Assembly (NCBI GenBank): GCA_021820105.1
Contig: JAKAED010000029.1
Span: 1 to 32,190, forward strand
Direction: 5' to 3'
Source of the DNA: Actinomycetes bacterium
GTDB lineage: Bacteria; Actinomycetota; Thermoleophilia; Solirubrobacterales; Solirubrobacteraceae
DNA: 32,190 nucleotides
Within the stretch, counting starts at the first letter, position 1. Every line of letters begins with the position of its first letter. Below the pieces are notes generated by a model. That model was given only the letters and a program-made list of their open reading frames with translations, was not told the origin of the DNA and made no database searches. Below are positions 15,006 to 31,372 of this stretch, piece by piece. The position numbers and the translations under genes are program-made.

Positions 15006-16369
15006 GTGGTTGCGTAGTAGATGGTTTTAATTTCTGTATAGGCGTCGGTCGCATGCGGTCCAAGCTCGCGTCCGTATCCGGACTGCTTGAAGCCGCCGAA
15101 CGGGGTGCTCACGCGGACCGAAGAGTTGGAGTTGATCGACAGCACGCCCGTCTCGACCGCTCGTGCCACCCGCAGCGCCCGCCCACCGTCACGAGTCCAG
15201 ATTGAACCGGACAGACCATAGATCGTGTCGTTGGCCAGGCGCACGGCTTCATCCTCGTCGCGGAACGGAATCACCGCCACGACCGGCCCGAAGATCTCCT
15301 CGCGGACCGCACGCGAGTCTGGTGCGACCGGTGCCAGCACGGTCGGTGCGAACCAGAAGCCCGGCCCTTCTGGGGCACTGCCGCGGAAGGCGATCTCGGC
15401 GCCGTCAGAATCCAGGAATGACGCGACACGGTCGCGCTGCCGGGCGGAGATCAGCGGTCCCATCATCGAGTCTGGATCAAGCGGATCGCCGACCTTGAAG
15501 CTCTCAACGTGAGGTTGGAGCAGCGTCAGGAACTTGTCCACGGCGGATGCCTCTACGAGCAGTCGCGAGCGTGCGCAGCAGTCCTGGCCGGCGTTGTCAA
15601 ATACGGCCCACGGAGCGGCTGCGGCGGCCTTCTCCAGGTCGGCGTCGGCGAAGATGATGTTGGCCGACTTTCCGCCCAGCTCAAGGGTCACGCGCTTGAT
15701 CGTCTGCGCCGCTGCCGCCGCAATCTGCCGGCCCACAGCGGTCGAGCCGGTGAAGGCGATCTTTGCCACGTCTGGGTGCTCGACCAGGTGCGCCCCCGCC
15801 TCCGGTCCGGTTCCGGCAACGACGTTCACGACGCCGGGAGCGATCCCTGCGTCCAGGACGAGCTGTTCAAAGCGCAGCGCGGTGAGCGGTGTCAGCTCTG
15901 CGGGCTTCAGCACCACGGTGTTGCCGGCCGCGAGCGCCGGTCCGAGCTTCCACGCAGCGATCGTCAGTGGGAAGTTCCAGGGAACGATCAGGCCGACGAC
16001 TCCCAGTGGCTCGCGAACCGTGAACGCCTGTCCGCCCGCGACCGGGATGGTGTCGCCGAGCAGGCGCTCGGGCACACCGGCGTAATAGCGGAAGGTGTCC
16101 ACGACCATCCCCATCTCGCCGCGTGCCGAGGCAAGCGGCTTGCCGGCGTTGCGCGCTTCGAGCAGCGCCAGCTCCTCAAGGTGCTCTTCGACCTTGTCGG
16201 CCAGTGCGCGCAGCTGAGCGGCGCGCGCGGCGGGCGCCAGCCCGCGCCACGCTGGAAGCGCGGCGCGGGCCTGGGCGACAGCCTCATCGACTTCATCCGT
16301 CCCCGCACAGGGAACCTCCTCGAGCACGCCTTCAGTGGCGGGCTCGAGGACCGTCAGCACATCAGTCAT
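15002..16369 (-). CDS. NAD(P)-dependent aldehyde dehydrogenase
   Basis: 455 residues, soluble, oxidises an aldehyde to its acid. Motifs in order: PWNFP (130-134, with oxyanion-hole N132), FTGSTAVGR (206-214), general base E230 in TLELGGKS, and catalytic C264 in NAGQDCCARSR. Late signatures EEIFGPV and the C-terminal FGGFKQSGYGRE are also present. The family includes betaine-aldehyde, aminobutyraldehyde and glutamyl-aminobutyraldehyde (PuuC-like) dehydrogenases, which cannot be told apart here. A permease gene ends 41 bases upstream and the SDR gene follows by a 4-base overlap. With a glutamine-synthetase-like gene in the cluster, a role on an aminoaldehyde is the likeliest reading. Confidence 0.92.
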   Translation of the reverse strand: MTDVLTVLEPATEGVLEEVPCAGTDEVDEAVAQARAALPAWRGLAPAARAAQLRALADKVEEHLEELALLEARNAGKPLASARGEMGMVVDTFRYYAGVPERLLGDTIPVAGGQAFTVREPLGVVGLIVPWNFPLTIAAWKLGPALAAGNTVVLKPAELTPLTALRFEQLVLDAGIAPGVVNVVAGTGPEAGAHLVEHPDVAKIAFTGSTAVGRQIAAAAAQTIKRVTLELGGKSANIIFADADLEKAAAAAPWAVFDNAGQDCCARSRLLVEASAVDKFLTLLQPHVESFKVGDPLDPDSMMGPLISARQRDRVASFLDSDGAEIAFRGSAPEGPGFWFAPTVLAPVAPDSRAVREEIFGPVVAVIPFRDEDEAVRLANDTIYGLSGSIWTRDGGRALRVARAVETGVLSINSNSSVRVSTPFGGFKQSGYGRELGPHATDAYTEIKTIYYATT

Positions 16370-16410
16370 GTGGCCTTTCTATGTCAGTGCAAATGCGTTG
16401 AAGCGACCGC

Positions 16411-18006
16411 TCACGGAGCCGCCGGGCCTGGCGCGATCTCCTCAAGCCCCTCGAGCTCGTGGAAGACGCCGTCATCGATCGTCCGGATCGGTCCCTTGAA
16501 GGTGCGCCGCGCCGACAGCAGGTACCAGGCGGTCACCAGCAACATGATCCCGATCGTCACGATCGGTGCGTAGTTCACGGAGCTCCAGCTGAAGCCCTTG
16601 CTGAAGAACACGCCCGCCGGAGAGGTCGGCAGGCAGAAGATGATCACGCACAGGCTCACCCACACCACCGCGATCAGATTCACCCACTTGTACTTGGCGC
16701 CCAGCGTCCACGAGCCCGGCTTGAAACCGTCACCCATACGCCACCGCAGGAATACCGGGATCGTGTAGGCGATGTAGAGGCCGATGACCGTGATCGACGT
16801 GACCGCAAAGAACGCGACCGGGTAACCGGCTGAGTTCGGGAACAGCGCGGGAATGGTGATCAGGGTCGCCATCGCGACGACGAACAGCACCGCGTAGGTG
16901 GGCGTCTTGTTGGCTCCCAGCCGCCGCCACAGCTGGTGGCCGGGGACGGCACCGTCACGGCTGAAGGCGAATGTCATGCGTGAGCAGCTGGTGACGCAGG
17001 CCATGCCGCAGAACAGCTGGCCCACGGTCGAGATGAAGATCACGAGCTTCGCGGTGCCGCTGCCGAGCGCGCTGGTGATGATCGCCAGGGCGGGGAAGCC
17101 GGCGCTGTTGATCGCGTTGAGGTGATTGGGAGTTGCGGCGAAGGTCAGAGCCATCAGCACGATCCAGCCGATCACGGCGGAGTAGGCGACTGAGCGCCAA
17201 ACGCCCCGGGGCGCCGCGTTCTCGGCGCCGTGCGTCTCCTCTGAGATGTGCGCTGAGGCGTCATAGCCCGTGATCGTGTACATGGTCAGCAGGAAGCCCA
17301 GCGGCAGCGTGTAGTACCAGTACATGTGATGCCCGAAGGCGCCGAACGCGCGGCTGCCGAACACGAACGAGGCGGTCGCGTGATGGCTCGGAACCGCGAA
17401 CAGCAGGATCGCGATGACCGCGACGCCAATCACGTGCCACCACACCGAGATGTTGTTGAACAGCGAAACCAGGTGGCTCGAGAAGACGTTGATCAAGCCG
17501 TGGATCACCAGGAACAGCATGAACAGCACGAACACCACGTGCGCGTCGTACTTGACGTTCGTGGAGGCGAAGTTGAAGATGAAGTTCAGGTTGTAGAGCC
17601 CGAGCAGGTACTGAGCGAAGCTGGCGGCCGCGTAATCCACTGAGGCGACGCAGGCGATCAGACCGATCAGGTTGAACCAGCCGGTGAACCAGCCCCAGCC
17701 GGGGCCACCGAGTTTCGAGGCCCAGTAGTAGATGCCGCCTGAGGTGGGCATCGCCGAGGCCAGTTCAGACATCGAGAAGGCCACGCACAGGATCAGGCAC
17801 GCGATCACCGGCCAGCCGATTGAGATCGCCACCGCACCGCCGTTCAGGAATGCCTGCCCGTAGCTGGTGAAGCATCCCGCCAGGACCGAGATGATCGAAA
17901 ACGAGATGGCGAAGTTCGAGAACGAACTCCAGCCGCGCTTGAGCTCCTGTTTGTAACCGAGTTCCGCCAGTTTCTGTTCGTCGGCGGACAGGCTCCCCGT
18001 ACTCAT
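16411..18006 (-). CDS. APC-superfamily amino acid/amine permease
   Basis: 531-residue secondary transporter with about 12 membrane helices. The start ELGYKQELKRGWSSFSNFAI followed by SFSIISVLAGCFTSYG is characteristic of the APC amino acid/choline (ACT, BAT1-like) group; later GYDASAHISEETHGAENAAP is the conserved loop of that group. The ATG at 18004-18006 is preceded by GGAGGGG with nine-base spacing. Substrates of relatives include GABA, choline, ethanolamine and polyamines. It opens the transport/oxidation operon (permease, ALDH, SDR) about 200 bases downstream of the GntR regulator gene, a region with a candidate promoter and operator-like palindrome. Confidence 0.9.
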   Translation of the reverse strand: MSTGSLSADEQKLAELGYKQELKRGWSSFSNFAISFSIISVLAGCFTSYGQAFLNGGAVAISIGWPVIACLILCVAFSMSELASAMPTSGGIYYWASKLGGPGWGWFTGWFNLIGLIACVASVDYAAASFAQYLLGLYNLNFIFNFASTNVKYDAHVVFVLFMLFLVIHGLINVFSSHLVSLFNNISVWWHVIGVAVIAILLFAVPSHHATASFVFGSRAFGAFGHHMYWYYTLPLGFLLTMYTITGYDASAHISEETHGAENAAPRGVWRSVAYSAVIGWIVLMALTFAATPNHLNAINSAGFPALAIITSALGSGTAKLVIFISTVGQLFCGMACVTSCSRMTFAFSRDGAVPGHQLWRRLGANKTPTYAVLFVVAMATLITIPALFPNSAGYPVAFFAVTSITVIGLYIAYTIPVFLRWRMGDGFKPGSWTLGAKYKWVNLIAVVWVSLCVIIFCLPTSPAGVFFSKGFSWSSVNYAPIVTIGIMLLVTAWYLLSARRTFKGPIRTIDDGVFHELEGLEEIAPGPAAP

Positions 18007-18082
18007 GCTTGCTCCCCTCCTAGAGTCTCATGGTGGGCCCCGCAAACCGCCGAAAGGTTCGGCGACCGGCCCTTAGCGCGCG

Positions 18083-18111
18083 ATCCTGCCCAAGCTTGGC
18101 TGCGAAGTCAA
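18083..18111 (-). promoter_or_regulatory. Candidate permease promoter with palindrome between -35 and -10
   Basis: On the minus strand TTGACT (18106-18111) and CAGGAT (18083-18088) are 17 bases apart. The perfect palindrome CCAAGCTTGG (18090-18099) lies in the spacer, a position where a bound regulator such as the neighbouring GntR protein would block polymerase. The permease ATG is about 70 bases downstream. The -10 is weak (3 of 6). Confidence 0.4.
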
Positions 18112-18163
18112 GACCAATCCCGCAACTTCATACATTTGGATAGGCGCCGTGTCGGGTGACCCT

Positions 18164-18193
18164 GTTTCGACCGGCCCGCTGGCCGGTCGAAAC
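18164..18193 (-). terminator. Perfect 13-bp hairpin after the GntR gene
   Basis: GTTTCGACCGGCC (18164-18176), loop CGCT, GGCCGGTCGAAAC (18181-18193): a perfect stem starting 12 bases after the GntR stop (18206). It has no T-run. It probably separates the GS-GntR transcript from the permease operon, or folds so that the downstream genes are less expressed. A dyad operator is the other reading. Confidence 0.6.
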
Positions 18194-18205
18194 GCCCACC
18201 CGGGC

Positions 18206-18949
18206 TCAGGTCCGGGGCAACAGCCCCGCGAGCACATGCTCGGTGCCCCGCAGGTGTTCCGCCATCTCCCGCGCGGCCGCGCCCTCGTCTCCGCTGGCCA
18301 CGGCCGCAAGCAGCCGGCGGTGCTGGCTGTTGGATGAGCCGAGAACCTCAGCCGGGTGCGCGATCAGGGCGAGCAGGCGGGTCACGCTCCCCTGAACCTC
18401 CGTGGTCGTCGTGATGCAGTGTGGATTCCCGGTCGCCTCCGCCAGACCGATATGGAAGCGCACGTCAAGCTGGCGGTAGACGGTGAAGTCCGCGGTTGCT
18501 CCGTCCATCGCGCGGCCCAACTCAGAGAGCATGCTGATCGCCTCCGGGTGCGCTCGCCGACAGGCCAGTACTGCGACACCCACCTCGACCGCGATGCGGT
18601 AGTCCCAGGTCTCGTGCCAACGATCGAGCAGCTCAGCCGGCGGTGGCGGCGCCGGGGGAAGCTCGTCGACGACGAACGTGCCGCCGCCACGACCACGGGT
18701 CGCGTGCAGGTGCCCGCTCTGGCCGAGCGCGACCAGCGCCTGGCGCAGCGTTGAGCGCGCGATGCCTAGCTTCGCGCACAGCTCCCGTTCGGCGGGCAGC
18801 CGCGTGCCCGGTGGCAGCAGTCCCAGGCGGATGGCCGTGCCGATCCTGTCAACCGCCTCCTCAAACGCCGTCTGGGAGCGCACCGGCGCGAAGATCGCAT
18901 CGAGCGAGGTGGCTGTGTCAAGCGTGCCTGTGCGCTCGCTGATCGTCAT
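18206..18949 (-). CDS. GntR-family (FadR/FCD type) transcriptional regulator
   Basis: 247 residues. The N-terminal winged helix-turn-helix (about 28-95) has PPGTRLPAERELCAKLGIAR STLRQAL followed by a wing GRGGGTFV. The C-terminal all-helical FCD domain (about 110-240) has DVRFHIGLAEATGN and HRRLLAAVASGD, with Asp/His positions typical of metal-binding FCD domains that sense organic acids. It starts 19 bases after the ligase gene on the same strand and is followed by a strong hairpin, then the permease operon. It is the obvious local regulator of the cluster, responding to an intermediate; the ligand is unknown. Confidence 0.9.
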   Translation of the reverse strand: MTISERTGTLDTATSLDAIFAPVRSQTAFEEAVDRIGTAIRLGLLPPGTRLPAERELCAKLGIARSTLRQALVALGQSGHLHATRGRGGGTFVVDELPPAPPPPAELLDRWHETWDYRIAVEVGVAVLACRRAHPEAISMLSELGRAMDGATADFTVYRQLDVRFHIGLAEATGNPHCITTTTEVQGSVTRLLALIAHPAEVLGSSNSQHRRLLAAVASGDEGAAAREMAEHLRGTEHVLAGLLPRT

Positions 18950-18968
18950 CGTGCTGTCGTTTCGGGGC

Positions 18969-20297
18969 TCACAGCCGCTCGAAGCCGCGTACCCGTTCCC
19001 AATCTGTCACGGCGGCGTCAAACGCTGTCAGCTCGACGGTCGCGGCGTTCACGTAATGCGCCACTACCTCCTCGCCAAAGGCACGGCGAGCCACGTCGCT
19101 GGCGGCAAAGAGGTCTCGAGCGTCCCGCAACGTGGGCGGCAAACGCGGCCTGCTCTCGCTGACGTACGCATTTCCCTCAAGCGCCGGCTCGAGCTCGAGC
19201 CCCTGCTCCACACCCTCCAGTCCGGCGGCGATCAGCGCCGCCAGGGCCATGTAGGGGTTCAGATCCGCTCCTCCGGAGCGGTTCTCGAAGCGCAGTGAAT
19301 GGCCGTGTCCAACCACCCTGAAGGCGCAGGTGCGATTGTCGTGGCCCCACGCGACCGTTGTGGGGGCGAACGAGCCTACGGCGAAGCGCTTGTAAGAGTT
19401 GATGTTGGGAGCAAGCAGCAGCGTTAGTTCTCGAGCGTAGGCGAGCTGCCCGGCGAGGAACGACTCGAAGGTGTGCCGGTCACGCTGGAACAGCGGTCCC
19501 TCTGCGTCCGCCAGTGAGAAGTGGATGTGGCACGAGTTGCCCTCGCGCTCGTTGAACTTCGCCATGAAGCTGATCGCCATGCCCTCCTGGGCCGCGATCT
19601 CCTTCGCGCCGTTCTTGTAGACGACGTGGTTGTCGGCCATCGTCAGCGCGTCGGCGTAGCGGAAGTTGATCTCGTGCTGCCCGTAGTTGCACTCTCCCTT
19701 GGAGTTCTCCACGACCAGTTCAGCCGCCCTCATCGAGTTGCGGATCCGGCGGATCAGCGGCTCAACGCGCGAGGTGCCAAGCAGTGAGTAGTCGACGTTG
19801 TACTGGTTGCCCGGTTCGAGTTCCCGGTAGCCCTTGCGGAACGCCTCCTCGTAGCTGTCGCGGAAGACCAGAAACTCAAGCTCGGTGGCCGCGTTGGCCG
19901 TCCAGCCACGCTCCGCCAGCCGCGCGAGCTGAGCGCGCAGCACCTGACGCGGTGAGGCCACCACATCGGTGCCATCGGCCCAGGCGAGGTCTGCCAGGCA
20001 CAGCACCGTGGCGGTCTCCCACGGCATCATCCGCAGCGTCGTGAGATCCGGGCGCATCACGAAATCTCCGTAGCCCTTCTGCCACGACGCCATCTCGTAT
20101 CCGTCGACCGTGTTCATCTCCACATCGACGGCCAGCAGGTAGTTGCAGCCCTCAGCGCCGTGGTGCAGCACCTCGTCCAGGAAATACCTGCCGGTCAGGC
20201 GCTTCCCCTGCAGCCGGCCCTGCATGTCCGCCAGTGCCAGTACGACGGTCTCAATCTCGCCCGCGTCGATCCCTGCTCTCAGTGCCTCGAGCTCCAC
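18969..20297 (-). CDS. Glutamine-synthetase-like gamma-glutamyl-amine ligase
   Basis: 442-residue GS-fold ATP-dependent ligase. It has the GS N-terminal beta-grasp region (LADMQGRLQGKRL near 22-34) and the catalytic region with E139/E141 in ATELEFLVF, GECNYGQHEINF (201-212), HIHFS (257-261) and the later NRTCAFRVV plus FENRSGGADLNPY. Length and motifs match the type-I-like paralogues (PuuA, GlnA3/GlnA4, gamma-glutamylmethylamide synthetase) that attach glutamate to amines instead of ammonia; this is favoured by context, not proven by sequence. The GTG start at 20295-20297 follows GGGGAG. It is divergent from the phosphotransferase gene across 97 bases and opens the GS-GntR transcript. Confidence 0.88.
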   Translation of the reverse strand: MELEALRAGIDAGEIETVVLALADMQGRLQGKRLTGRYFLDEVLHHGAEGCNYLLAVDVEMNTVDGYEMASWQKGYGDFVMRPDLTTLRMMPWETATVLCLADLAWADGTDVVASPRQVLRAQLARLAERGWTANAATELEFLVFRDSYEEAFRKGYRELEPGNQYNVDYSLLGTSRVEPLIRRIRNSMRAAELVVENSKGECNYGQHEINFRYADALTMADNHVVYKNGAKEIAAQEGMAISFMAKFNEREGNSCHIHFSLADAEGPLFQRDRHTFESFLAGQLAYARELTLLLAPNINSYKRFAVGSFAPTTVAWGHDNRTCAFRVVGHGHSLRFENRSGGADLNPYMALAALIAAGLEGVEQGLELEPALEGNAYVSESRPRLPPTLRDARDLFAASDVARRAFGEEVVAHYVNAATVELTAFDAAVTDWERVRGFERL

Positions 20298-20310
20298 CGC
20301 AACTCTCCCC

Positions 20311-20339
20311 TTGACTAATGCGCCTGACGACGATGTGAT
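20311..20339 (+). promoter_or_regulatory. Candidate promoter of phosphotransferase-flavoprotein genes
   Basis: TTGACT (20311-20316), 17 bases, TGTGAT (20334-20339, 4 of 6 matches) on the plus strand, about 55 bases ahead of the start at 20395. It lies in the 97-bp divergent gap with the ligase gene, so a single regulator could act on both directions. Confidence 0.4.
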
Positions 20340-20394
20340 GCGCAGCCATGAAGGTATATGAGTCGCGCCTTAACCGCCACACCTTGATCAGCGG

Positions 20395-21306
20395 ATGACT
20401 GAGCTCGCTGATCTGCTGCCGAGGCTCGAGCGTGAACTCGGGGTCAGCTCTGGTGCGCCTCTGCCGCTCAGCGGCGGGATCACCAACCGCAATTACCGGA
20501 TGCGGCTCGGGGCGCATGACTGCGTGCTGCGGCTGCCAGGAGCCGATACGGCGCTGCTCGGGATCGATCGCGTCGCGGAGCGGCTCGCGGCCGAGCGGGC
20601 CGCGAGCCTCGGCATCGGACCGGAACTGCTCTACGCGGACGAGGATTGTCTGGTCACCGCGTTTGTCCCCGGCGTGCCGGTCGACCCGGCGCAACTCCGA
20701 GCCGACCCGGCGCAGGTTGGGCGGGCGCTGCGCGCCTTCCATGACAGCGGCCTGGAACTGCCGATGCGCTTCTGGATCCCGGAGCTGCTTGAAAAGTACG
20801 CGCTGCTGGTGCGGGAGCGCGGCGCCGGCTTGCCGCCCGCCTTCACGCGAGCTCGGGCGCTGGTTGACAGGATTGCGCGCGTGTTGCCGCTGAACGATGC
20901 CGTTCCCTCACACAACGACCTGCTGGCGGGCAACCTGATCCAGACGGGATCGAGCGTCCTGCTCGTTGACTGGGAGTACGCGGGGCTTGGGCATCGCTAC
21001 TTCGACCTGGGCAACCTCGCGGTCAACAACGAGTTTGATGAAGCTGCGGAGCGGCGCCTCCTCGAGTCCTACTTCGGCGTCGCTGACGGCGGTGAACCTG
21101 CCGGGAGCGCGCAGGCGCGGCTGGCGCGGCTGCGTCTGTTCCGCCTTGTATCCGATGCCCGGGAGGCCGCGTGGGGAGTGGCTCAGGAGCTCATCTCCGA
21201 GCTGGAGTTTGACTTCGCCGCCTATGCGGATGAGCACTTTGAGCGGCTCGACCGAGCTGCCGCCGACCCACAACTGGAGGAATACCTGAATGCCGCGACC
21301 CCGTGA
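20395..21306 (+). CDS. Choline/ethanolamine-kinase-like phosphotransferase (APH fold)
   Basis: 303-residue small-molecule kinase. The N-lobe has LSGGITNRNYRM (nucleotide loop, 26-37) and VLRLPG; the C-lobe has the catalytic Brenner motif SHNDLLAGN (172-180) and the metal motif VDWEYAG (D192), followed by YFDLGNLAVNN. That combination is typical of the choline/ethanolamine kinase (LicA-like) branch of the APH superfamily. It could phosphorylate an amino alcohol or a thiamine-like substrate. The gene's last 17 bases overlap the flavoprotein gene, so the two are co-translated. A kinase fused by operon to a demethylating flavoprotein is not a textbook pairing. Confidence 0.85.
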   Translation: MTELADLLPRLERELGVSSGAPLPLSGGITNRNYRMRLGAHDCVLRLPGADTALLGIDRVAERLAAERAASLGIGPELLYADEDCLVTAFVPGVPVDPAQLRADPAQVGRALRAFHDSGLELPMRFWIPELLEKYALLVRERGAGLPPAFTRARALVDRIARVLPLNDAVPSHNDLLAGNLIQTGSSVLLVDWEYAGLGHRYFDLGNLAVNNEFDEAAERRLLESYFGVADGGEPAGSAQARLARLRLFRLVSDAREAAWGVAQELISELEFDFAAYADEHFERLDRAAADPQLEEYLNAATP

Positions 21307-23725
21307 ACTGCCTGACCGTGCCCGGATCGTGATCATCGGCGGTGGCGTTGGCGGTACCGCCATCGCGCACCAACTGGCCAAGCTCGGGGAGCGCGATGTG
21401 ATCCTGCTTGACCGCAACGAGCTGACCAGTGGCTCGACGTTCCACTCGGCCGGGCTGGTCGGACAGCTGCGTGGCAGCGTCTCGCTGACCCGAATGATGA
21501 TGGACTCGGTGGCCCTGTACCGGACGCTGGACTGCGGTTGGACCGAGTGCGGTGGCATCCGTCTCGCCTGCACTCCCGAGCGCGAGCAGGAGGTGCTGCG
21601 TCAGGTGGCCTGGGCGCGCACCTTCGGGCTGCCGCTCGAGCTGATCGGGCCCGAGGAGGCTCAGCGGCTGTTCCCGCTGATGGTCACCGACGGCGTGCGC
21701 TGTGGGTCCTACCTGCCCACCGACGGATATCTCGACCCCTCGCAGCTGACCTACGCGCTGGCCGAGGAGGCTCGCGCGGAGGGGGTGCGGATCTTCACCC
21801 ATACGCGCGTGACCGGGATCGACGTCCGCGGCGGACGGGTGCGCGGCGTTGAGACTGAGTGGGGCCCGGTTGAGGCGGAGATCGTGGTCAACGCCGGCGG
21901 CATGTATGCAGCGGAGATCGGCCGGCTGGCGGGTGTCAGGGTCCCGATCGTGCCATTCGCGCACGAGTACCTGGTGACGCAACCATTCCGCGAACGGGAA
22001 CGCGATGCCGACGGCAAGATCGTGCACCTGCCGACGCTGCGCGACCCGGACAACCTGATCTACTTCCGTGAGGAGGGGGACGGTCTGGTGATGGGTGGCT
22101 ATGAACGTCACAGCGCACCGTGGTCACTGGACGCACAGCTGGTCGACCGCATCCCGGCGGACTTCAACGGTCGGCTGCTCGAGGAGGACTGGCCGCGCTT
22201 TGAGGAGATCGCCGAGAACTCCCGGCGTCGGGTTCCGGCGATGGAGGACGTCAGGGTCACGCGGCTGATCAACGGACCGGAGGCGTTCACCCCGGACAAC
22301 GAGTTCTGCCTCGGCGAGAGCGACGTTGGCGGCTTCTTCGTGGCCGCCGGCTTCTGCGCCCACGGCCTGGCGGGGGCGGGCGGGATGGGGAAGCTGATGG
22401 CGGAGTGGATCGTCGCCGGCGAGCCGGGGCTTGACGTCTGGGAGATGGACATCCGCCGCTTCGGCCCGCAGTACCGCTCTCCCGCCTACACGCTCAAGCG
22501 CACCAAGGAGGTCTACGAGACCTATTACGACATCCGCTACCCCGGGCACGAGCGGCAGGCCGGTAGGCCTCTGCGGCTGCCGCCCGCCTACCAGTGGCAC
22601 GCTGAGCACTACGCGAGCTTTGGCGAGAAGTCCGGTTGGGAACGGGTCAACTGGTATGAGGGCAACGCTGCCGCCGGGGACGCGAGCCTGCGCCCGCGTG
22701 GCTGGGCGGGGATGCACTGGTCGCCCGCGATCGGCGCCGAGGCACTAGGCACGCGAGCGCGCGCGGGGCTGTTTGATGAGTCCTCCTTCAGCAAGCTGGA
22801 GCTGACCGGACCGGGAGCGGCGGCGTTGCTGGAGCAGTTGTGCGACAACCGCGTGGCACGCGAGGTCGGTCAGATCACCTACACACAGATGCTCAACCGT
22901 CACGGCGGGATCGAGTGCGACTTCACTGTGACCCGTGTTGCTGAGGAGCTTTTCCAGATCGTCACCGGCACCGCCTTTGGGCAGCACGACGCGAGCTGGA
23001 TCCGCCGCCACCTGCCGGCGGACGGCTCGGTGAGCCTGTCCGACGTGACCTCCCGCTGGGCCTGCTTCGGGCTCTGGGGCCCACGCGCGCGTGACGTGCT
23101 CGCGCCGCTTACTCCGGATCCGCTCGACTTCGGCTACATGCGCATGCGCGAGATCACCGTGGGCGACGTGCCGGTGCGTGCGCTGCGGGTCACCTACGTG
23201 GGTGAGTTCGGTTGGGAGCTTTACTGCCCCAGTGAATATGGCCTGAACCTGTGGCGCGCACTGTGGGAGTCCGGCGAGCCGGCGGGGATGGTGGCCGGCG
23301 GCTACCGCGCGATCGACTCGCTGCGGCTGGAGAAGGGCTACCGCGCGTGGGGCTCTGACATCACGCCTGACGAGAGCCCGTATGAGGCCGGCCTCGGGTT
23401 CTGTGTCGCAGCGGACAAGACGTTCAACGGCTCCGAGACGTTGCGCGACCGGCCGGTCACGCGGCGGTTGCGATGCATCACGCTCAGTGACCCCCGGGCG
23501 GTCACGCTCGGCAACGAGCCGGTGCGGATCGACGGGGCGGTGGTTGGCCGGGTGACAAGCGGCGGCTACGGCTACGCGGTGCAGCGCTCGATCGCCTATG
23601 CCTACCTGCCGCCGGAGGTTGATGTCGGCGCCTCGCTGGAGATCGACATCTTTGGCGAGTGGGTGTCCGGCGAGGTCACCCGTGAGCCGCTGTATGACCC
23701 GGAGGGGGCGCGGCTGCGGGGGTGA
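21290..23725 (+). CDS. DAO-GcvT flavoprotein, dimethylglycine/sarcosine dehydrogenase-like
   Basis: 811-residue two-domain enzyme. The N-terminal DAO domain has the ADP motif IIGGGVGGTAIAHQL (15-29) and STFHSAGL with H52 at the position of the histidine that carries covalent FAD in dimethylglycine dehydrogenases. The C-terminal half (from about 430) is a GcvT/aminomethyltransferase domain with WERVNWYE, FDESSFSKLELTGPGA, VTYVGEFGWELY and RLEKGYRAWGSDIT, which in relatives accepts formaldehyde onto tetrahydrofolate. It should therefore oxidise an N-methylated amine or amino acid and deliver a C1 unit to folate. Substrate choice (dimethylglycine, sarcosine, glutamylated methylamine) is open. 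GGAGG precedes the ATG with nine-base spacing, inside the kinase gene. Confidence 0.92.
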   Translation: MPRPRELPDRARIVIIGGGVGGTAIAHQLAKLGERDVILLDRNELTSGSTFHSAGLVGQLRGSVSLTRMMMDSVALYRTLDCGWTECGGIRLACTPEREQEVLRQVAWARTFGLPLELIGPEEAQRLFPLMVTDGVRCGSYLPTDGYLDPSQLTYALAEEARAEGVRIFTHTRVTGIDVRGGRVRGVETEWGPVEAEIVVNAGGMYAAEIGRLAGVRVPIVPFAHEYLVTQPFRERERDADGKIVHLPTLRDPDNLIYFREEGDGLVMGGYERHSAPWSLDAQLVDRIPADFNGRLLEEDWPRFEEIAENSRRRVPAMEDVRVTRLINGPEAFTPDNEFCLGESDVGGFFVAAGFCAHGLAGAGGMGKLMAEWIVAGEPGLDVWEMDIRRFGPQYRSPAYTLKRTKEVYETYYDIRYPGHERQAGRPLRLPPAYQWHAEHYASFGEKSGWERVNWYEGNAAAGDASLRPRGWAGMHWSPAIGAEALGTRARAGLFDESSFSKLELTGPGAAALLEQLCDNRVAREVGQITYTQMLNRHGGIECDFTVTRVAEELFQIVTGTAFGQHDASWIRRHLPADGSVSLSDVTSRWACFGLWGPRARDVLAPLTPDPLDFGYMRMREITVGDVPVRALRVTYVGEFGWELYCPSEYGLNLWRALWESGEPAGMVAGGYRAIDSLRLEKGYRAWGSDITPDESPYEAGLGFCVAADKTFNGSETLRDRPVTRRLRCITLSDPRAVTLGNEPVRIDGAVVGRVTSGGYGYAVQRSIAYAYLPPEVDVGASLEIDIFGEWVSGEVTREPLYDPEGARLRG

Positions 23726-26279: not shown

Positions 26280-27095
26280 TCAAGGGGCCAGGAAGCTGCT
26301 CCGCAGCGAGTCCCCGACGAGGTTGAACGCGATCACGGTCACCATGATCATCAGGCCTGCGGGATAGACCTCCCACCAGTAGCCGTCCAACAGGTAGGAC
26401 GTGCCCTGATAGAGCATGCCGCCCCAGCTGGTCGCGGGCGCCGGCAGGCCGAATCCCAGGAAGCTGAGCGTGGCCAGCAGGATGATCGCGTCGGCGACCT
26501 GGAAGGTCGCGTTGACGACCAGCGTGCCGAGCGTGCCGGGCAGCACATGACGCACAACGATCCGCGCCGATGTTGCTCCCATACCGCGGGCGGCGTCAAC
26601 AAACTCCCTGCTCCGAAGCGAGAGCGACTCACCCCGGATCAGGCGCGCCGGGCCAAGCCAGGAGAGCAGCGAGATGACCCCGATCAGCAGCGGCAGGGTG
26701 GGTTGCGTGACCGTCGCCAGGTAGATCAACACGAAGATCGCGGGCAGTGCCAGGAGGGTGTCCACAGCCCGCATCATGAGCGCGTCCAGCGCCCCGCCGG
26801 CGAGACCGGCGACGGCACCCCAGAGCGCGCCGAAGCTGGTTGCCAGCAGCGCCACCGCCAGGCCGATCTCCAGGGAAGCGCGGCCTCCCACCATCAGTCG
26901 CCCCAGCACGTCATAGCCATTGGCGTCGGTGCCCAATGGATGCGCCCCGCTGGGTCCCAGGTTCGTGATCGCGACGTTCGCGTGGGTCTGATCCGTCTGG
27001 TACAGCAACGGTCCCAGGAAGCAGAAGCAGAGCAGCAGGAGGATGAGGGTGAGACCGGTGGCGACGGCAGGGCGGTCGCGCAACTTGAGGGTCAT
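26280..27095 (-). CDS. ABC transporter permease, DppC/OppC-like, TPP-riboswitch operon
   Basis: 271-residue inner-membrane permease of the peptide/nickel type, about six helices. The EAA-loop signature RGMGATSARIVVRHVLPGTL faces the ATPase partners, followed by LLATLSFLGFGLP and the C-terminal NLVGDSLRSSF. The periplasmic N-terminal segment with HPLGTDANGYDVLGR is the DppC hallmark. Start ATG overlaps the DppB-like stop as ATGA. No ATP-binding subunit gene follows; the next gene is a convergent cupin gene abutting at the stop. The substrate is probably a thiamine-related compound because the operon lies under a TPP riboswitch. Confidence 0.88.
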   Translation of the reverse strand: MTLKLRDRPAVATGLTLILLLLCFCFLGPLLYQTDQTHANVAITNLGPSGAHPLGTDANGYDVLGRLMVGGRASLEIGLAVALLATSFGALWGAVAGLAGGALDALMMRAVDTLLALPAIFVLIYLATVTQPTLPLLIGVISLLSWLGPARLIRGESLSLRSREFVDAARGMGATSARIVVRHVLPGTLGTLVVNATFQVADAIILLATLSFLGFGLPAPATSWGGMLYQGTSYLLDGYWWEVYPAGLMIMVTVIAFNLVGDSLRSSFLAP

Positions 27096-28123
27096 TGCGT
27101 CTCCTGACGCAGATGCACGCGGGGATCCAACAGGGCGTACGCGATATCGGCCAGCGCGCTGCCCAGCACGGTTGCCAGGGCGACAACCACGGTCACGCCC
27201 AGTTCCACCGGGTAATCCGCGTTGGCAGCGGCGGTCCAGTAGCTCAGACCGACGCCGGGCACGTTGAACACGTACTCCACAACGAGCCCGGAGGTGAGCA
27301 GCATCGGCACGGACATGCCGAGCAGCGTCACCACACCCAGCAGGGAGTTGCGCAGCACGTGTCGCGCCAGCACCAGGCGCTCAGGAAGCCCCTTGGCGCG
27401 GGCCAGTCGCACGTAGTCCTGCGCCAACGTCTCCAGGGCCGCCGAGCGCATGTAGCGGCTGAACCAGGCGACGTTGACGAGCGTCAGCGTGAGCACCGGC
27501 AGGACCAATCCCATCGGGTCCGCGAGGATGCCCGCAGGGGCGGAGGACTGCCCCGCCTCCGGTGGCAGCAGGCGTGCGCCGATGCTGAGGCCCGCGATCA
27601 GCAGCAGTGCGAGCCAGTAGGCCGGCATCGCGTAGAGTCCCAGTCCGACGGTGGTGAGGATGCGGTCGAACGCGCGGCCACGGTGAACCGCCTGAGCGAT
27701 CCCCAGCGGCAGCGCGAGGATGAGCGCCAGCGTGAGCCCCAGGCCGACCAGGATCAGGTCGTTTGGAACCTCTTGGGCGATCAGCGCGCCCACACTCTGG
27801 TTGAGTCGGTAGGAGTAGCTGAGGTTGCCGTGCAGAAGCCGCCAGAGGTAGTCCAGGTACTGGATCGGGAGTGGCTGGTCAAGTCCGTTAGCGGCGTTGA
27901 ACGCGGCCACCGCACGGGGCGATGCGCGCGGCCCCAGGATCGCGTGGGCGATGCTGCCGGGCGTCAGCCGCTCGAGCATGAACACCACCAGCGTGACCCC
28001 CAGCAGGACGCCCGCGGCCTGCGCCAGGCGTCTGACCGCAAAACCTGCCAGCGGCGTACGTGCCCGGCCGCCGGGAGGCCGTGCTGCGGCCAGCTCCTCC
28101 TGCTGCTGCGTGGCGACGCTCAC
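27092..28123 (-). CDS. ABC transporter permease, DppB/OppB-like, TPP-riboswitch operon
   Basis: 343-residue permease. It has an N-terminal helix AGVLLGVTLVVFMLERLTPG with GSIAHAILG as in DppB, an EAA loop RLARAKGLPERLVLARHVLR and the C-terminal SGLVVEYVFNVPGVG. The open frame extends to 28648, but that portion is the antisense-frame shadow of the binding-protein gene. The start is the GTG at 28121-28123, overlapping the binding-protein stop as GTGA, and it gives a normal basic N-terminus (VATQQQEELAAARPPGGRAR). Pairs with the DppC-like protein as the membrane channel of the importer. Confidence 0.88.
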   Translation of the reverse strand: MSVATQQQEELAAARPPGGRARTPLAGFAVRRLAQAAGVLLGVTLVVFMLERLTPGSIAHAILGPRASPRAVAAFNAANGLDQPLPIQYLDYLWRLLHGNLSYSYRLNQSVGALIAQEVPNDLILVGLGLTLALILALPLGIAQAVHRGRAFDRILTTVGLGLYAMPAYWLALLLIAGLSIGARLLPPEAGQSSAPAGILADPMGLVLPVLTLTLVNVAWFSRYMRSAALETLAQDYVRLARAKGLPERLVLARHVLRNSLLGVVTLLGMSVPMLLTSGLVVEYVFNVPGVGLSYWTAAANADYPVELGVTVVVALATVLGSALADIAYALLDPRVHLRQETQ

Positions 28124-30030
28124 CGGACGAAGTACCACTCCTCCGGGCTCAGATACCCGTACGCGTTCGGCGTGGCTCCCGCAAGGTTGGACTGGAAGCT
28201 CAGCAGCGTGCCCGGTGAGGGTTGCCAGAAGTCCGGGAGCTGCAGCCGCACGGCGTTGGCGTACGCGTCCAACGCCTGCTGGGCGACCCGGCCGGGTGCG
28301 GTGGTGGTTGCCTTGATCAGGCTGTCCACGCGCCGGTTGGAGTAGCTGCCGACATTGCCGAGCGCACCCGTTTGGAAGATCTCCTCGCCGGTTGGGTAAT
28401 GATCCGGTGCGAACACCCAGGCCGACCCATATTGACCCAGCTGCCAGTTGCAGGCCGCAGTGTGCGGCGCGCAGGGTTCGATCTCGGCATTGATCGTCGC
28501 GTTGGTCACCTCTCTGAGCTGGAGTTGGATGCCGACCCGGCGTGCGACGGACTGCAGGTCCACCATGGCGCCGTCCGTGGAGGACATGCCGCTGGGATAC
28601 ATCAGCGTGAAACGCAGCTCCTGGCCGCCCGGGATGTCCGCTCCGCACTGGTCACGGCCGTTGCCGGGACGAATGCACCTGGTGATCCCGGCCGCCATCA
28701 CCTTCCACCCATGGGCGGCAAGGAGCCGGCGGGCGGCGGCGACGTTGAACGGATAGGGATCGATGCGGGCCAGCGTGTCCGCAAACGGGTTGGCTGGCTG
28801 TGCCGGAACCGGACTGTAGGTCGGTACGCCCAAACCCTGGTAGTAGGCGTGGATCCAGCCACGCTGGTCGACCAGATGCTGGAAGGCCTGGCGGAAGTAG
28901 AGCTGGCGCAGGATCGGGCCCACGGTCGGGTTGTTGAAGTTGGGCTCGAAGTAGTCAAACCCATACGGGTAGAAGGCGGTCAGGCGGTAGCCCTGGGCGC
29001 GCAGCGTCGCGGCCTGGGGGACATCGGGATCGGGCACGTAGCCGACTGAGATCTGCGGGGCTGAACCGCCCTGGTTGCCCTTGGATGCGCCTGCCCGCAG
29101 CACTGAGAACTCCGCTGTCTCACTGGTGAACGGAAGCTCCACGAACCGCGCCAGGCGCGGCCTGTTCGGACCGCTGTAGGTCGGGTTCGGTATGAACGTG
29201 GCCTGGCCGGACGCGGTCAGCGAGCGCAGCTTCCAGGCGCCGTCCACCACCGACCAGATCGGGCTGGAGGTGTAGCTGGCGAGCCGCTTTGCCTGGTCAT
29301 CCAGGAAGCGGTACACGGCGCGGGCACCGGCCGGGTAGTTATCTGGTAGGCCTCCTGGGCCGAAGGTGGGGGGCGGGCCCGAGCCGGGCAGTTGGGTCAC
29401 GTCCCAGGCGAGCGGCAACGGCGTGATCTGGGACAGTTCGTTGTCCGTGAACCAGACCGGGTTGTAGGACCGGTTGAGTTGCAGCCGCACGGTGCGCGGC
29501 CCGACCGCCTTCCAGGACGTGAGGTTGTCCGGAAAGCCCCCGGGCACGTACGAGGCCCAGGCGGCACGGTTGGCCCGCAGCAGGTTGATCCAGAAGATCA
29601 CGTCGCGGGCGCTGACGGTTTCGCCGTTGGACCATCTGGCGTGCTTGAGCGTGATCGTGACGACCCGGTTGTGGTCGCTGTAGACGGGGGCATCCGCGAG
29701 CGACAGCGCGTAGTCGGCACGGGTGTGGCCGCGGTCGCCGTACCAGTAGAGCGGCCGGTACATGAGCGTCTGAAAGTCGTAGACGTTCTCATTGGAGTAG
29801 TAGGCACCCGAGATCAGGGGAAAGATGTAGTTGGGCGGCTGCAGCGGCTGCTCGGCCCAGTAGGCGGTGCCGCCACGGATCGGCGTGCCGGTGCTGGCTA
29901 GCACCCGTTGCGACGGTTGCCTGCCGGCCACATTGCCGGCCACATTGCCGGCCACGTGCGCCACGCCACACGCCGCCAGCAGGACCGAGGCGATGATGGC
30001 CGCGAGTCCGACTCGCCACTTGCTGTCCAC
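28120..30030 (-). CDS. SBP_bac_5-type solute-binding lipoprotein under TPP riboswitch
   Basis: 636-residue extracytoplasmic binding protein of the peptide/nickel family. Signal peptide and lipobox L-A-A-C21 are followed by a short repeat-built linker VAGNVAGNVAG (26-36), then the family's three-domain receptor with TITLKHARWSNGETVSARDV and VGPILRQLYFRQAFQHLVDQ. The GTG start (30028-30030) follows GGGAG by six bases, and those bases belong to the 3' end of the TPP aptamer. It is the first gene of the importer operon and its stop overlaps the DppB-like start. Family says peptides; riboswitch says thiamine, its phosphates or a precursor. Confidence 0.9.
   Translation of the reverse strand: MDSKWRVGLAAIIASVLLAACGVAHVAGNVAGNVAGRQPSQRVLASTGTPIRGGTAYWAEQPLQPPNYIFPLISGAYYSNENVYDFQTLMYRPLYWYGDRGHTRADYALSLADAPVYSDHNRVVTITLKHARWSNGETVSARDVIFWINLLRANRAAWASYVPGGFPDNLTSWKAVGPRTVRLQLNRSYNPVWFTDNELSQITPLPLAWDVTQLPGSGPPPTFGPGGLPDNYPAGARAVYRFLDDQAKRLASYTSSPIWSVVDGAWKLRSLTASGQATFIPNPTYSGPNRPRLARFVELPFTSETAEFSVLRAGASKGNQGGSAPQISVGYVPDPDVPQAATLRAQGYRLTAFYPYGFDYFEPNFNNPTVGPILRQLYFRQAFQHLVDQRGWIHAYYQGLGVPTYSPVPAQPANPFADTLARIDPYPFNVAAARRLLAAHGWKVMAAGITRCIRPGNGRDQCGADIPGGQELRFTLMYPSGMSSTDGAMVDLQSVARRVGIQLQLREVTNATINAEIEPCAPHTAACNWQLGQYGSAWVFAPDHYPTGEEIFQTGALGNVGSYSNRRVDSLIKATTTAPGRVAQQALDAYANAVRLQLPDFWQPSPGTLLSFQSNLAGATPNAYGYLSPEEWYFVR
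29922..29955. repeat. 12-bp tandem repeat in the binding-protein linker
   Basis: Nearly three copies of TGCCGGCCACAT (29922-29933, 29934-29945, partial from 29946) encode the GNVA repeats just after the lipobox cysteine. Being in frame, copy changes would only lengthen the tether to the membrane. Confidence 0.85.
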
Positions 30031-30032
30031 TG

Positions 30033-30121
30033 CTTGCTCCCTCCGCCGGCATGACCCGGATCAGGTTCTACGGTCGGCGCCTTGCAGCGCCCTCTCAGCC
30101 GGAATGGCTCCCGCGTTGTTC
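30033..30121 (-). ncRNA. TPP riboswitch (THI box)
   Basis: Read on the minus strand, the conserved aptamer elements appear in order: GGGAGCC-AUUCC-GGC (P2), CUGAGA (30098-30093), a variable P3 GGCGC-UGCAAG-GCGCC (30091-30076), GACCGUAGAACCUGAUC (ACCUGAUC at 30066-30059), then CCGG-GUCAU-GCCGG and GCGGAGGGA (30046-30038). These match the thiamine pyrophosphate aptamer consensus, including pyrimidine-binding CUGAGA and the ACCUGAUC/GCGGAGGGA core. TPP binding normally lowers expression. The ribosome site of the binding-protein gene overlaps the 3' end of the aptamer and its GUG start is just beyond, so control is probably at translation initiation; no terminator stem or T-run is visible. The P1 5' strand runs into the stop codon of the upstream kinase gene. 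Confidence 0.93.
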
Positions 30122-30677
30122 AGTCTCCGATTGTAGGCTCGTACCCCGGGTCGGCGCCACCGGAAACGACGAGGTCGAACGCTTCGGGCGGTCGCGTGGT
30201 GAAGTATTCGCGTTCGGCCTGCAGCCATTCCTCATCCCACTCCGCCGCGCTGATGCGCCCGTGCAGCCGCCGGAGCCGCACCGGCTCCGGGGTGGTGATC
30301 AAGATCGTGCGCGCGACCAGGTCCGCCAGGGCGGGCGCGGCTGATGAGACGCCCTCGATCAGGATCACGCGCGAGCCCGTGCTCGGCGTCTGCTCCAGAT
30401 CGTCACGCCGCAGCCGGACGATCGCGGGCGTCAGCGCCTGGGCACGCAACGCCTCCCAGTCGTAGTACGCCGCCATTGGATGGCCATCGGCGTGCTCACG
30501 GGCCTCATGGAAGAAGTCGTCCATTGCGATCGTGACAGCCGCCAGCGACCGCGCTGCCGTCGCCGTGATGGTCGTCTTGCCGGCGGCGCCGTGGCCGTCG
30601 ATGGCCACCACCAGTGGGCCCGGCACCTCCTGCTGCCAGACACGAATCGCGGCGACCACCCGTTCGGCGGCGGTCAC
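30120..30677 (-). CDS. Uridine-kinase-like P-loop protein
   Basis: 185-residue nucleoside/small-molecule kinase-like P-loop NTPase. Walker A is GHGAAGKTT (28-36), then AMDDFFH (the DDF(Y/F) substrate region of uridine kinases), a DWEALR segment, LIEGVSSAAP and the lid-like RRLHGRIS. Likely phosphorylates a nucleoside or vitamin-type alcohol; exact substrate unknown. I chose the GTG at 30675-30677 because it overlaps the metallopeptidase stop as GTGA; an ATG at 30710 would add 11 residues and overlap more. The stop lies at the 5' edge of the TPP riboswitch, so a transcript continuing through could link it to the importer. Confidence 0.8.
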   Translation of the reverse strand: MTAAERVVAAIRVWQQEVPGPLVVAIDGHGAAGKTTITATAARSLAAVTIAMDDFFHEAREHADGHPMAAYYDWEALRAQALTPAIVRLRRDDLEQTPSTGSRVILIEGVSSAAPALADLVARTILITTPEPVRLRRLHGRISAAEWDEEWLQAEREYFTTRPPEAFDLVVSGGADPGYEPTIGD

Positions 30678-31372
30678 AGCACCAGCGTTCCGGCGTTCCG
30701 TCGCAGCCACAGGGCCTGCTCGCGATGGTCCGGGCAGTGCCGCTGCACCAGCGCCCAGAAGCGCGGCGAGTGATCCATGACGGCAAGGTGGCAGACCTCG
30801 TGCCAGACGACATAGTTCAGCACCGCCTCAGGAGCTAGCAGCAGCCGCCAGTTGAAGCTGAGCCCGCCGCTGCGCGAGCAGCTGCCCCAGCGTGTGCGCT
30901 GGTCGCGAATCGTGAGGCGCGTGTGCTGGAGCCCGGTCAATTCGCATGCGCGTTCCACGCGCGCGCTGAACTCGGCGCGGGCCATCCGCCGATACCACCG
31001 CTCGAGCGCCGGCGTCCGCTGCGGTCCGATCGGCACCAGCAGGGTGTCGCCGCGCCGGGTGACAAGCGCGCGACCGGACTCGGGATGCAACGTGAGGCTG
31101 CTGCCCAGATAGGGCACCGTGTCACCGCGCGCCAGCACACTGGCGCGCTGCCGCTCGACCTCGGCCAACCTCCGTTCGATCCAGGGGCGCAGCTCCTGAA
31201 CCGCATCGTCCGCCGCGTGCGCAGCGCATCGCTGCGGGAGCACCACCTCGACCGTGCCGGAGCGATCCACGACCACGCGCACCCGACGGGCGCGCGCCGA
31301 GCGGCGCACCTGATAGGCAAGCGTGGCCTCATGCCGTGTGGAGGCAAGCGGTTGTTGAATAAGCGCATACAC
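30674..31372 (-). CDS. YgjP-like (DUF45) zinc metallopeptidase domain protein
   Basis: About 232 residues. The C-terminal domain has RWGSCS (161-166), WRLLLAPEAVLNYVVWHEVCH with the zinc motif H191-E192-xx-H195, and the third ligand region DHSPRFW (H201), ending CPDHREQALWLRRN, the signature of the YgjP/DUF45 metallopeptidase-like family (related to SprT/WSS1). The N-terminal LAYQVRRSARARRVRVVVD is the typical beginning of the family. The open frame runs further upstream, so the start is uncertain: GTG at 31372 keeps the family N-terminus, and GTG at 31309 is the shorter choice. It is divergent from the GNAT-like gene by 29 bases and overlaps the kinase gene by 4. Confidence 0.82.
   Translation of the reverse strand: MYALIQQPLASTRHEATLAYQVRRSARARRVRVVVDRSGTVEVVLPQRCAAHAADDAVQELRPWIERRLAEVERQRASVLARGDTVPYLGSSLTLHPESGRALVTRRGDTLLVPIGPQRTPALERWYRRMARAEFSARVERACELTGLQHTRLTIRDQRTRWGSCSRSGGLSFNWRLLLAPEAVLNYVVWHEVCHLAVMDHSPRFWALVQRHCPDHREQALWLRRNAGTLVL

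What the first reader, a model, noticed from the sequence alone, without database searches (positions are those of the whole stretch)
28120..30121. TPP riboswitch controls a peptide-type (SBP_bac_5/DppBC) importer
The minus strand carries a full THI-box aptamer directly ahead of a binding protein and permeases that homology alone would label a dipeptide importer. Riboswitch control implies thiamine, its phosphates or a precursor such as HMP as cargo. Well-known bacterial thiamine importers (ThiBPQ, YkoEDC, ThiXYZ, ThiT) are of other families, so this may be an undescribed or rarely noted vitamin B1 transporter.
Basis: partly seen in the sequence, partly recalled or inferred. Interest (0 to 1): 0.82.

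Follow-up and report, generated by a model that had tools for sequence, protein, structure and literature searches.

The report
Vitamin B1 switch on peptide-type importer
In a group of actinobacteria that seems to have lost the ability to make vitamin B1, the one vitamin B1-sensing RNA switch found controls an importer of the kind normally used for small peptides, which makes that importer a strong candidate for a new kind of vitamin B1 transporter.

Summary
An RF00059 aptamer at 30124-30021(-) scores 51.4 bits, E 3.6e-9, slightly under the 54.3-bit gathering score. It contains the Shine-Dalgarno of an SBP_bac_5 gene (28120-30030), which two DppB/DppC-type permease genes follow. It is the only TPP aptamer found in this genome. 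Seven other genomes of the genus, among them complete Conexibacter sp. S30A1, have an ortholog (66% identity or more) with the same arrangement and one aptamer each. In all 8, thiC and thiD and any full-length thiG went unfound; ThiE has lost most active-site motifs; the ThiY locus, where found, has no aptamer and a replaced central segment. Sister species keep aptamers on thiC, thiO-thiG or ThiXYZ. ThiL passes its cut-off in 6 of 8. By elimination the cargo is most likely thiamine or TMP, not a precursor. A uridine/nicotinamide-riboside-kinase-like gene lies 0-1.3 kb upstream of the aptamer in these 8 and in no other genus member searched: a candidate thiamine kinase. No ATPase gene is adjacent; no ligand was tested. 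My paper searches found no SBP_bac_5-type thiamine importer.

The parts
30021..30124 (-). TPP (THI-element) riboswitch aptamer
   Evidence: RF00059 51.4 bits, E 3.6e-9; only match found in the genome; present ahead of the orthologous gene in the other 7 clade genomes, in G007 across a contig break
30040..30044 (-). Shine-Dalgarno GGAGG inside the aptamer's 3' strand; its AGG is predicted to pair with CCU in the aptamer
   Evidence: sequence; consensus pairs 68-93, 69-92, 70-91 of alignment A4; 9 nt to the start codon
28120..30030 (-). SBP_bac_5 substrate-binding lipoprotein (636 aa, GTG start)
   Evidence: PF00496 E 9.4e-34; AlphaFold2 model pLDDT 87.6, best PDB match oligopeptide-binding AppA 1xoc, E 1.9e-33
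27092..28123 (-). DppB/OppB/NikB-type permease; start codon uncertain (open frame runs up to 28648)
   Evidence: PF00528 E 5e-35, PF19300; NCBIfam Opp2B E 7.7e-70, under its cut-off; 28060 is not a start codon
26280..27095 (-). DppC/OppC-type permease (271 aa)
   Evidence: PF00528 E 1.6e-23; NCBIfam Opp4C E 3e-79, under its cut-off
30120..30710 (-). P-loop kinase of the uridine kinase / nicotinamide riboside kinase type, abutting the aptamer upstream; candidate thiamine kinase (inference)
   Evidence: found in 9 of 61 genomes: the 8 clade genomes (0-1.3 kb upstream of the aptamer) and one weak hit, G036; PRK06547 E 4.7e-10, far under its cut-off; fold matches

Best explanation
This is the TPP-repressed vitamin B1 importer of a thiamine-auxotrophic lineage of Solirubrobacterales. 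The binding lipoprotein, of the peptide/nickel-type family SBP_bac_5, captures thiamine or thiamine monophosphate and hands it to the DppB/DppC-type permeases, energised by an Opp/Dpp-type ATPase encoded elsewhere. ThiL makes TPP from TMP; if free thiamine is imported, a separate kinase is needed, perhaps the neighbouring P-loop kinase. When TPP is plentiful the aptamer folds and one of its helices takes up the AGG of the Shine-Dalgarno sequence, so the binding protein is not translated; when TPP is scarce the site is free. Shown: aptamer, gene order, conservation, and the failure to find the rest of the pathway or its visible decay. Predicted: the pairing of the Shine-Dalgarno. Inferred: cargo, source of the ATPase, the kinase's role, and coupling of permease expression to the switch.
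For: Aptamer on the SBP gene in 8 of 8 genomes with an ortholog of at least 66% identity; in G007 aptamer and gene lie on two contigs whose ends share about 53 bases with 2 mismatches. One TPP match per genome in all 8. thiC 0 of 8; full-length thiG 0 of 8 against 18 of 20 other genus members; thiD 0 of 8 against 18 of 20. ThiE motifs QxRxK and GQxD lost in 7 of 7 clade rows that cover them, TPTKP altered (Lys to Arg) in 8 of 8. No aptamer at the clade's ThiE and ThiY loci fetched; central segment of ThiY replaced in 6 of 6 clade rows aligned in full, whereas sister species carry an aptamer on ThiXYZ. thiL over cut-off in 6 of 8. YkoE found in 0 of 14 genomes, the 8 included. G011 is one contig and equals a record titled complete genome, so there assembly gaps should not explain the absences. 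Residues specific to the TPP-controlled SBPs cluster at 534-558 around the conserved Asp543.
Against: No ligand, uptake or growth data. All 8 genomes share one origin of the arrangement (tree of 7 of them), so they are one event, not eight. No ATPase in the operon; in G007 and G026 no permease genes follow the SBP either. An Asp nearly invariant in the whole SBP set is kept, so peptide binding is not excluded. 3 of 8 clade ThiE proteins still pass the TIGR00693 cut-off, and ThiY lost the same segment in two thiC-bearing species, so that loss alone does not prove auxotrophy. Short PF05690 (ThiG) matches pass Pfam's low cut-off in all 61 genomes; I disregard them. Other NMT1-type paralogs (about 32-36% identity to ThiY) occur in clade genomes. 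The aptamer lacks a canonical P1. G007 has no recognisable ThiL. Thiamine transporters without a riboswitch, other than YkoE, were not searched; one search used stricter filters that can lose weak aptamers.
Confidence: 0.78

Rival explanations
1. It is an ordinary peptide (or other nutrient) importer that came under a TPP riboswitch, for instance by rearrangement, and does not carry thiamine.
For: Family and permeases are of the peptide/nickel type; the conserved Asp is kept; 0 of 73 more distant homologs examined has the aptamer ahead of the SBP.
Against: The arrangement has been kept in 8 species whose SBPs have diverged to 65-74% identity, and it is the only TPP aptamer found in those genomes; apart from it I found no route to thiamine there, though not every known transporter was searched.
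Confidence: 0.1
2. It imports a thiamine precursor (HMP, formylaminopyrimidine or hydroxyethylthiazole), replacing ThiXYZ one for one.
For: ThiXYZ, whose binding protein is closest to a formylaminopyrimidine-binding protein, is what many sister species keep under the same control.
Against: ThiD was found in 0 of 8 and most ThiE active-site motifs are lost, so known enzymes could not turn a precursor into TMP. ThiM and TenA were not searched.
Confidence: 0.05
3. The aptamer is a decaying remnant (for example of a former thi operon at this place) and no longer regulates.
For: Score under the gathering threshold and no canonical P1; single-sequence minimum-energy folds give the aptamer helices clearly in only some of the 8.
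Against: Core letters are invariant over 8 genomes while the flanks diverge; 7 of 22 pairs show double changes across 28 aptamers, most of them from sister species; SD-to-start spacing is 9 nt in 8 of 8.
Confidence: 0.05

Closest known systems
ThiXYZ (NMT1/THI5-type precursor importer under a TPP riboswitch)
   Same: ABC importer controlled by a TPP aptamer; present under such control in sister species of the same genus
   Different: Binding protein of another family (best PDB match 3ix1) and an ATPase gene in the operon; here SBP_bac_5 with DppBC-type permeases and no ATPase gene
ThiBPQ (TbpA) thiamine ABC importer
   Same: Inferred cargo (thiamine and its phosphates, recalled for ThiB) and TPP riboswitch control (thiB under THI-elements in PMC2211319, passages read)
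   Different: The window SBP matches only PF00496 among Pfam families
Opp/Dpp/Nik peptide-nickel importers
   Same: SBP_bac_5 fold and two BPD_transp_1 permeases
   Different: TPP aptamer in the leader, apparently thiamine-auxotrophic background, no ATPase gene in the operon, clade-specific residues near Asp543
TPP riboswitch with the Shine-Dalgarno inside the aptamer
   Same: Same layout as thi loci of the genus, where called start codons also fall within the aptamer match (e.g. L035, L036, L039)
   Different: Only the downstream gene differs

Membership tests
TPP riboswitch, RF00059 | Covariance-model score at or above gathering (54.3 bits) | tested here: not met
   51.4 bits, E 3.6e-9; 5 of 8 clade aptamers do pass
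TPP riboswitch, RF00059 | Conserved core (CUGAGA, ACCUGAUC) with the inner helices | tested here: met
   Alignment to the model; consensus fold with 22 pairs, 7 with double changes
TPP riboswitch, RF00059 | P1 closing helix | tested here: not met
   4 of 5 model pairs non-standard
TPP riboswitch, RF00059 | Binds TPP and controls expression | not testable with these tools
   needs in-line probing or a reporter
SBP_bac_5 (cluster C) binding proteins | PF00496 match over its cut-off and the matching fold | tested here: met
   117.5 bits against 32.4; the 50 best Foldseek rows shown are by title peptide, nickel and similar binding proteins (cluster C is a recalled label)
Opp/Dpp peptide ABC importer | Two OppB/OppC-type permeases with the SBP | tested here: met
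   not beside the SBP in G007 and G026
Opp/Dpp peptide ABC importer | OppD/OppF-type ATPases in the operon | tested here: not met
   Next gene is a + strand cupin; ATPase-like frames occur in paralogous clusters, e.g. L087 (read by eye)
Opp/Dpp peptide ABC importer | Peptide is the ligand | not testable with these tools
   needs a binding assay
ThiXYZ / NMT1 importer | NMT1-type binding protein | tested here: not met
   Window SBP matches only PF00496
YkoEDC importer | YkoE (PF09819) subunit | tested here: not met
   0 of 14 genomes, the 8 clade genomes included; rings in 2 of 14 control genomes
ThiBPQ importer | ThiB-type binding protein | tested here: not met
   No such Pfam or NCBIfam family on the window SBP; a ThiB elsewhere in the genome was not searched

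The most novel reading that the evidence does not exclude
The locus is a complete, so far undescribed vitamin B1 salvage module: an SBP_bac_5-type thiamine importer under a TPP riboswitch, beside a nicotinamide-riboside-kinase-like P-loop enzyme that phosphorylates thiamine to TMP, which ThiL turns into TPP. Both transporter and kinase would be new families for these tasks, and together they would replace biosynthesis, ThiXYZ and thiamine pyrophosphokinase in this lineage.
Probability: 0.2. Interest if true: 0.78.

Novelty: new variant of a known kind. Interest (0 to 1): 0.64.

Why it matters
If true, a peptide/nickel-type binding-protein family gains a vitamin B1 branch, which homology-based annotation would call a dipeptide importer. 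It would explain how a lineage without recognised thiamine synthesis lives, and would be a clear case of one transporter family replacing another (ThiXYZ) under the same RNA switch. It also gives a directly testable candidate for the missing thiamine-to-TMP kinase in bacteria that have ThiL but no recognised thiamine pyrophosphokinase.

Tried and rejected
Rejected: HMP or another precursor as cargo (no thiD found, ThiE motifs lost). Rejected as thiamine kinase: the window's choline-kinase/APH-like gene at 20395-21306; it does not show at this place in the G017 neighbourhood, but its function was not tested. Considered: that many SBP_bac_5 relatives are TPP-controlled; the R1 scan of the 80 named loci kept (of 241 relatives) found the aptamer only in the clade. 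Weak R1 matches taken as chance: L184 (21.4 bits) and L193 (14.6 bits), both on the strand opposite to the SBP; L091 (21.8 bits, E 0.007) inside the coding region of a 41% paralog; L093 (16.0 and 15.8), L100 (14.0) and L090 (13.3). The CTGAGA motif count is no evidence.

Dropped before counts: PF05690 (ThiG) matches weaker than about 1e-60, which are short (mostly around positions 165-225) yet pass Pfam's cut-off in all 61 genomes; TIGR00097 (ThiD) matches weaker than 1e-30 (G018 counted as present with a 113.8-bit fragment under the cut-off); the ThiY row of G024, cut to 19 residues by my script, although one search shows a 315-aa ThiY-like frame there.

Led nowhere: first aptamer alignment, with 10 of 28 rows on the wrong strand (redone); automatic start picking in G007 chose an ATG 4 nt after the SD, whereas the aligned GTG lies at 9 nt; my ORF caller chose wrong-frame ORFs in several loci. 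Paper searches without a relevant hit.
Full report
Observation. The default Rfam scan of the window reports nothing, because the TPP aptamer at 30124-30021 on the minus strand scores 51.4 bits, under the gathering score of 54.3; at E 3.6e-9 it is nevertheless beyond chance, and it is the only RF00059 match found in the 4.0-Mb genome (264 contigs, 88.9% complete). P1 is poor: 4 of its 5 model pairs are non-standard. The gene it overlaps, 28120-30030, encodes a 636-residue SBP_bac_5 lipoprotein; two BPD_transp_1 permeases follow, closest to Opp/Nik/Dpp permeases but under every NCBIfam cut-off listed. No ATPase gene follows; the next gene is a cupin on the other strand.

Layout of the switch. 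GGAGG (30044-30040) lies in the 3' strand of the aptamer, 9 nt before the GTG start at 30030. In the consensus fold of 28 aptamers from the order (8 clade, 20 others), the AGG of this sequence pairs with CCU, so a folded aptamer should hide part of the ribosome-binding site. Called start codons of thi genes in sister species also fall within the aptamer match, so this layout looks like the habit of the genus and is nothing new. Single-sequence minimum-energy folds of the 8 leaders give the expected helices clearly in some (G017, G024) and only partly or not in others.

Conservation. Among 61 genomes (own plus 60 relatives), 19 have an SBP match at E 1e-3. Eight of them (G000, G007, G011, G012, G017, G020, G024, G026) have an ortholog of at least 66% identity; all other matches are at 49% or less. 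Seven of the 8 have the aptamer immediately upstream on the same contig. In G007 the aptamer ends one contig and the SBP starts another; the two ends share about 53 bases around the start codon with 2 mismatches, one of them in the Shine-Dalgarno. In G020 the SBP is split over two contigs and the aptamer precedes its 5' part. Each of the 8 genomes has exactly one TPP match (whose stricter filters can lose weak ones). The aptamer core is invariant while the flanks differ.

Named genomes. The GTDB scan kept the best 80 loci of 241 relatives. Seven belong to the clade (L114-L120; matched to G handles by equal contig lengths), among them Conexibacter sp. S30A1, titled complete genome (Thermoleophilia, Solirubrobacterales by NCBI taxonomy). 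The R1 model finds the aptamer in L114, L115, L116, L117 and L119 and its cut end in L118; L120 begins inside the gene. Of the 73 other loci (52% identity or less) 0 has it ahead of the SBP; L159 has only 108 bases before the match and so is hardly testable. A tree of 51 SBPs puts the 7 TPP-controlled rows in one clade (100/100): one origin.

What the lineage lost. In the genus set (28 genomes), thiC is in 0 of 8 clade genomes and 4 of 20 others. Full-length or long partial thiG (E below 1e-60) is in 0 of 8 and 18 of 20; in the clade only short matches at 4.8e-7 or weaker remain, of a kind found in all 61 genomes and formally over Pfam's low cut-off. thiD (E below 1e-30) is in 0 of 8 and 18 of 20. 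Fisher p is 1.4e-5 for thiG and for thiD, but the genomes are related and the p-values overstate the case. Several clade genomes are incomplete (69-93%), but G011 is a single contig. ThiE matches exist in 8 of 8, 3 of them over the TIGR00693 cut-off, but the clade proteins are fused to a membrane domain and have lost the motifs QxRxK (7 of 7 rows that cover it), GQxD (7 of 7) and TPTKP (Lys to Arg in 8 of 8), which M. tuberculosis-type ThiE 3o63 shows (that 3o63 is the M. tuberculosis enzyme, and that these residues bind substrate, diphosphate and metal, is recalled). NDR is kept in 1 of 7 (G012). R1 finds no aptamer at the 8 clade ThiE loci fetched.

What sister species keep. Their aptamers lie on thiC (for example G015), on a ThiO-like gene with thiG downstream and thiE divergent (for example G006), and on a ThiZ-ThiX-ThiY operon. 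For the last, 14 loci were fetched; in 10 the first frame called is the ATPase, in the other 4 my ORF caller chose other frames but the ThiY match lies downstream on the same strand. ThiY is closest to the formylaminopyrimidine-binding protein 3ix1. In the clade a ThiY ortholog was found in 7 of 8 genomes (not G007), with no aptamer in the stretches fetched; ThiZ and ThiX frames were called in G000, G024 and G026, whereas in G017 ThiY follows the upstream gene directly. In 6 of 6 clade rows aligned in full the central segment of ThiY, which I take for most of the second lobe, is replaced by a low-complexity, mostly Ser/Thr-rich stretch. The same loss occurs in G014 and G015, which have thiC, so it suggests that this ThiY no longer imports the precursor, not that the cell is auxotrophic. 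Other NMT1-type paralogs at about 32-36% identity remain in clade genomes, function unknown. A YkoE subunit is found in 0 of 14 genomes.

What is left. ThiL passes its cut-off in 6 of 8 clade genomes; G017 has a partial match (119.5 bits) and G007 only weak ones (77.4 bits or less). Thiamine pyrophosphokinase (PF04263) is in 0 of 28 genus members; the matches in 19 of 61 genomes all cover only positions 6-48 of 113. TMP is therefore the likely entry point: either TMP is imported, or thiamine is imported and phosphorylated by another kinase. The gene abutting the aptamer upstream (30120-30710) is found in 9 of 61 genomes: the 8 clade genomes, where it lies 0 to 1.3 kb upstream of the aptamer, and a weak hit in G036. 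Its Walker A motif (GxxxxGK) is kept in 8 of 8 rows; it matches PRK06547 and uridine kinases weakly, and its model (pLDDT 77.7) matches uridine kinases and human nicotinamide riboside kinase (best E 3.9e-7, TM about 0.4-0.54). Nicotinamide riboside, like thiamine, is an alcohol on a cationic ring (recalled); this is suggestive only. Common descent of the locus could explain the co-occurrence without any shared function.

Binding protein. The AlphaFold2 model (pLDDT 87.6, 51 sequences) is an SBP_bac_5-type binding protein; its best PDB matches include proteins for peptides, nickel chelates, EDTA, sialic acid, chitin oligosaccharides and an opine, so the fold does change ligands; no thiamine-binding protein is among the 50 shown. 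Seventeen positions are invariant in the 7 TPP-controlled proteins and rare (5% or less) in the other 44; five of them (534, 537, 544, 557, 558) surround the near-invariant Asp543. In OppA and DppA I take the corresponding Asp to hold the peptide amino group (recalled). Its retention leaves peptide binding possible.

Energising. G000, G007 and G026 carry paralogous SBP-B-C clusters with a fused ATPase-like frame of about 700 residues (L087, L092, L088, read by eye), which could serve the TPP-controlled importer. In G007 and G026 no permease genes follow the SBP, so there the whole membrane part would have to be shared. This is inference.

Literature. Nine searches of the open-access library (for the strain name only) gave no SBP_bac_5-type thiamine importer. 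In PMC3766115 (passages read: 19 thiamin and precursor transporter orthologs in the TPP analysis, 255 genomes overall) the words oligopeptide and dipeptide do not occur in the main text; its supplements were not read. PMC2211319 (passages read) names thiB, an outer-membrane receptor, thiXYZ and thiV. Rodionov 2002 is not held. All other listed papers were seen only in search listings.

Verdict. It is a new variant of a known kind: a riboswitch-controlled B1 importer built from an unexpected protein family.

Noticed in passing
G039, G042, G045, G048 (order-level relatives, genus g13): These genomes also have no strong ThiG, ThiE or ThiD match, yet have a TPP aptamer and a ThiY-like protein at 37-41% identity (downstream of the aptamer in three; in G048 the aptamer is at a contig end): a second possible auxotrophic lineage, perhaps with ThiXYZ carrying thiamine itself.
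   Followed up: no
L097 (G014) and L098 (G015): Two thiC-bearing species of the genus also have ThiY with its central segment replaced; this ThiY seems to have been freed for another task outside the clade too.
   Followed up: partly
L062:4652-5716 (G000) and orthologs: Degenerate ThiE is fused to a membrane domain that resembles a separate gene behind thiE in relatives such as L040 and L059.
   Followed up: partly
window 994-3739: Genes like type IV secretion coupling protein (TraD/TraG) and TraG-type ATPase; similar frames lie near the SBP locus in G007 (L083).
   Followed up: no
window 14262-23725: Amine-catabolism-like block: SDR, aldehyde dehydrogenase, amino acid permease, GntR/FCD regulator, glutamine-synthetase-like enzyme, choline-kinase/APH-like protein, DAO plus GCV_T protein.
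   Followed up: no
window 29923-29955: Short in-frame repeats (Val-Ala-Gly-Asn) in the linker behind the SBP lipobox; linker length varies between orthologs.
   Followed up: no
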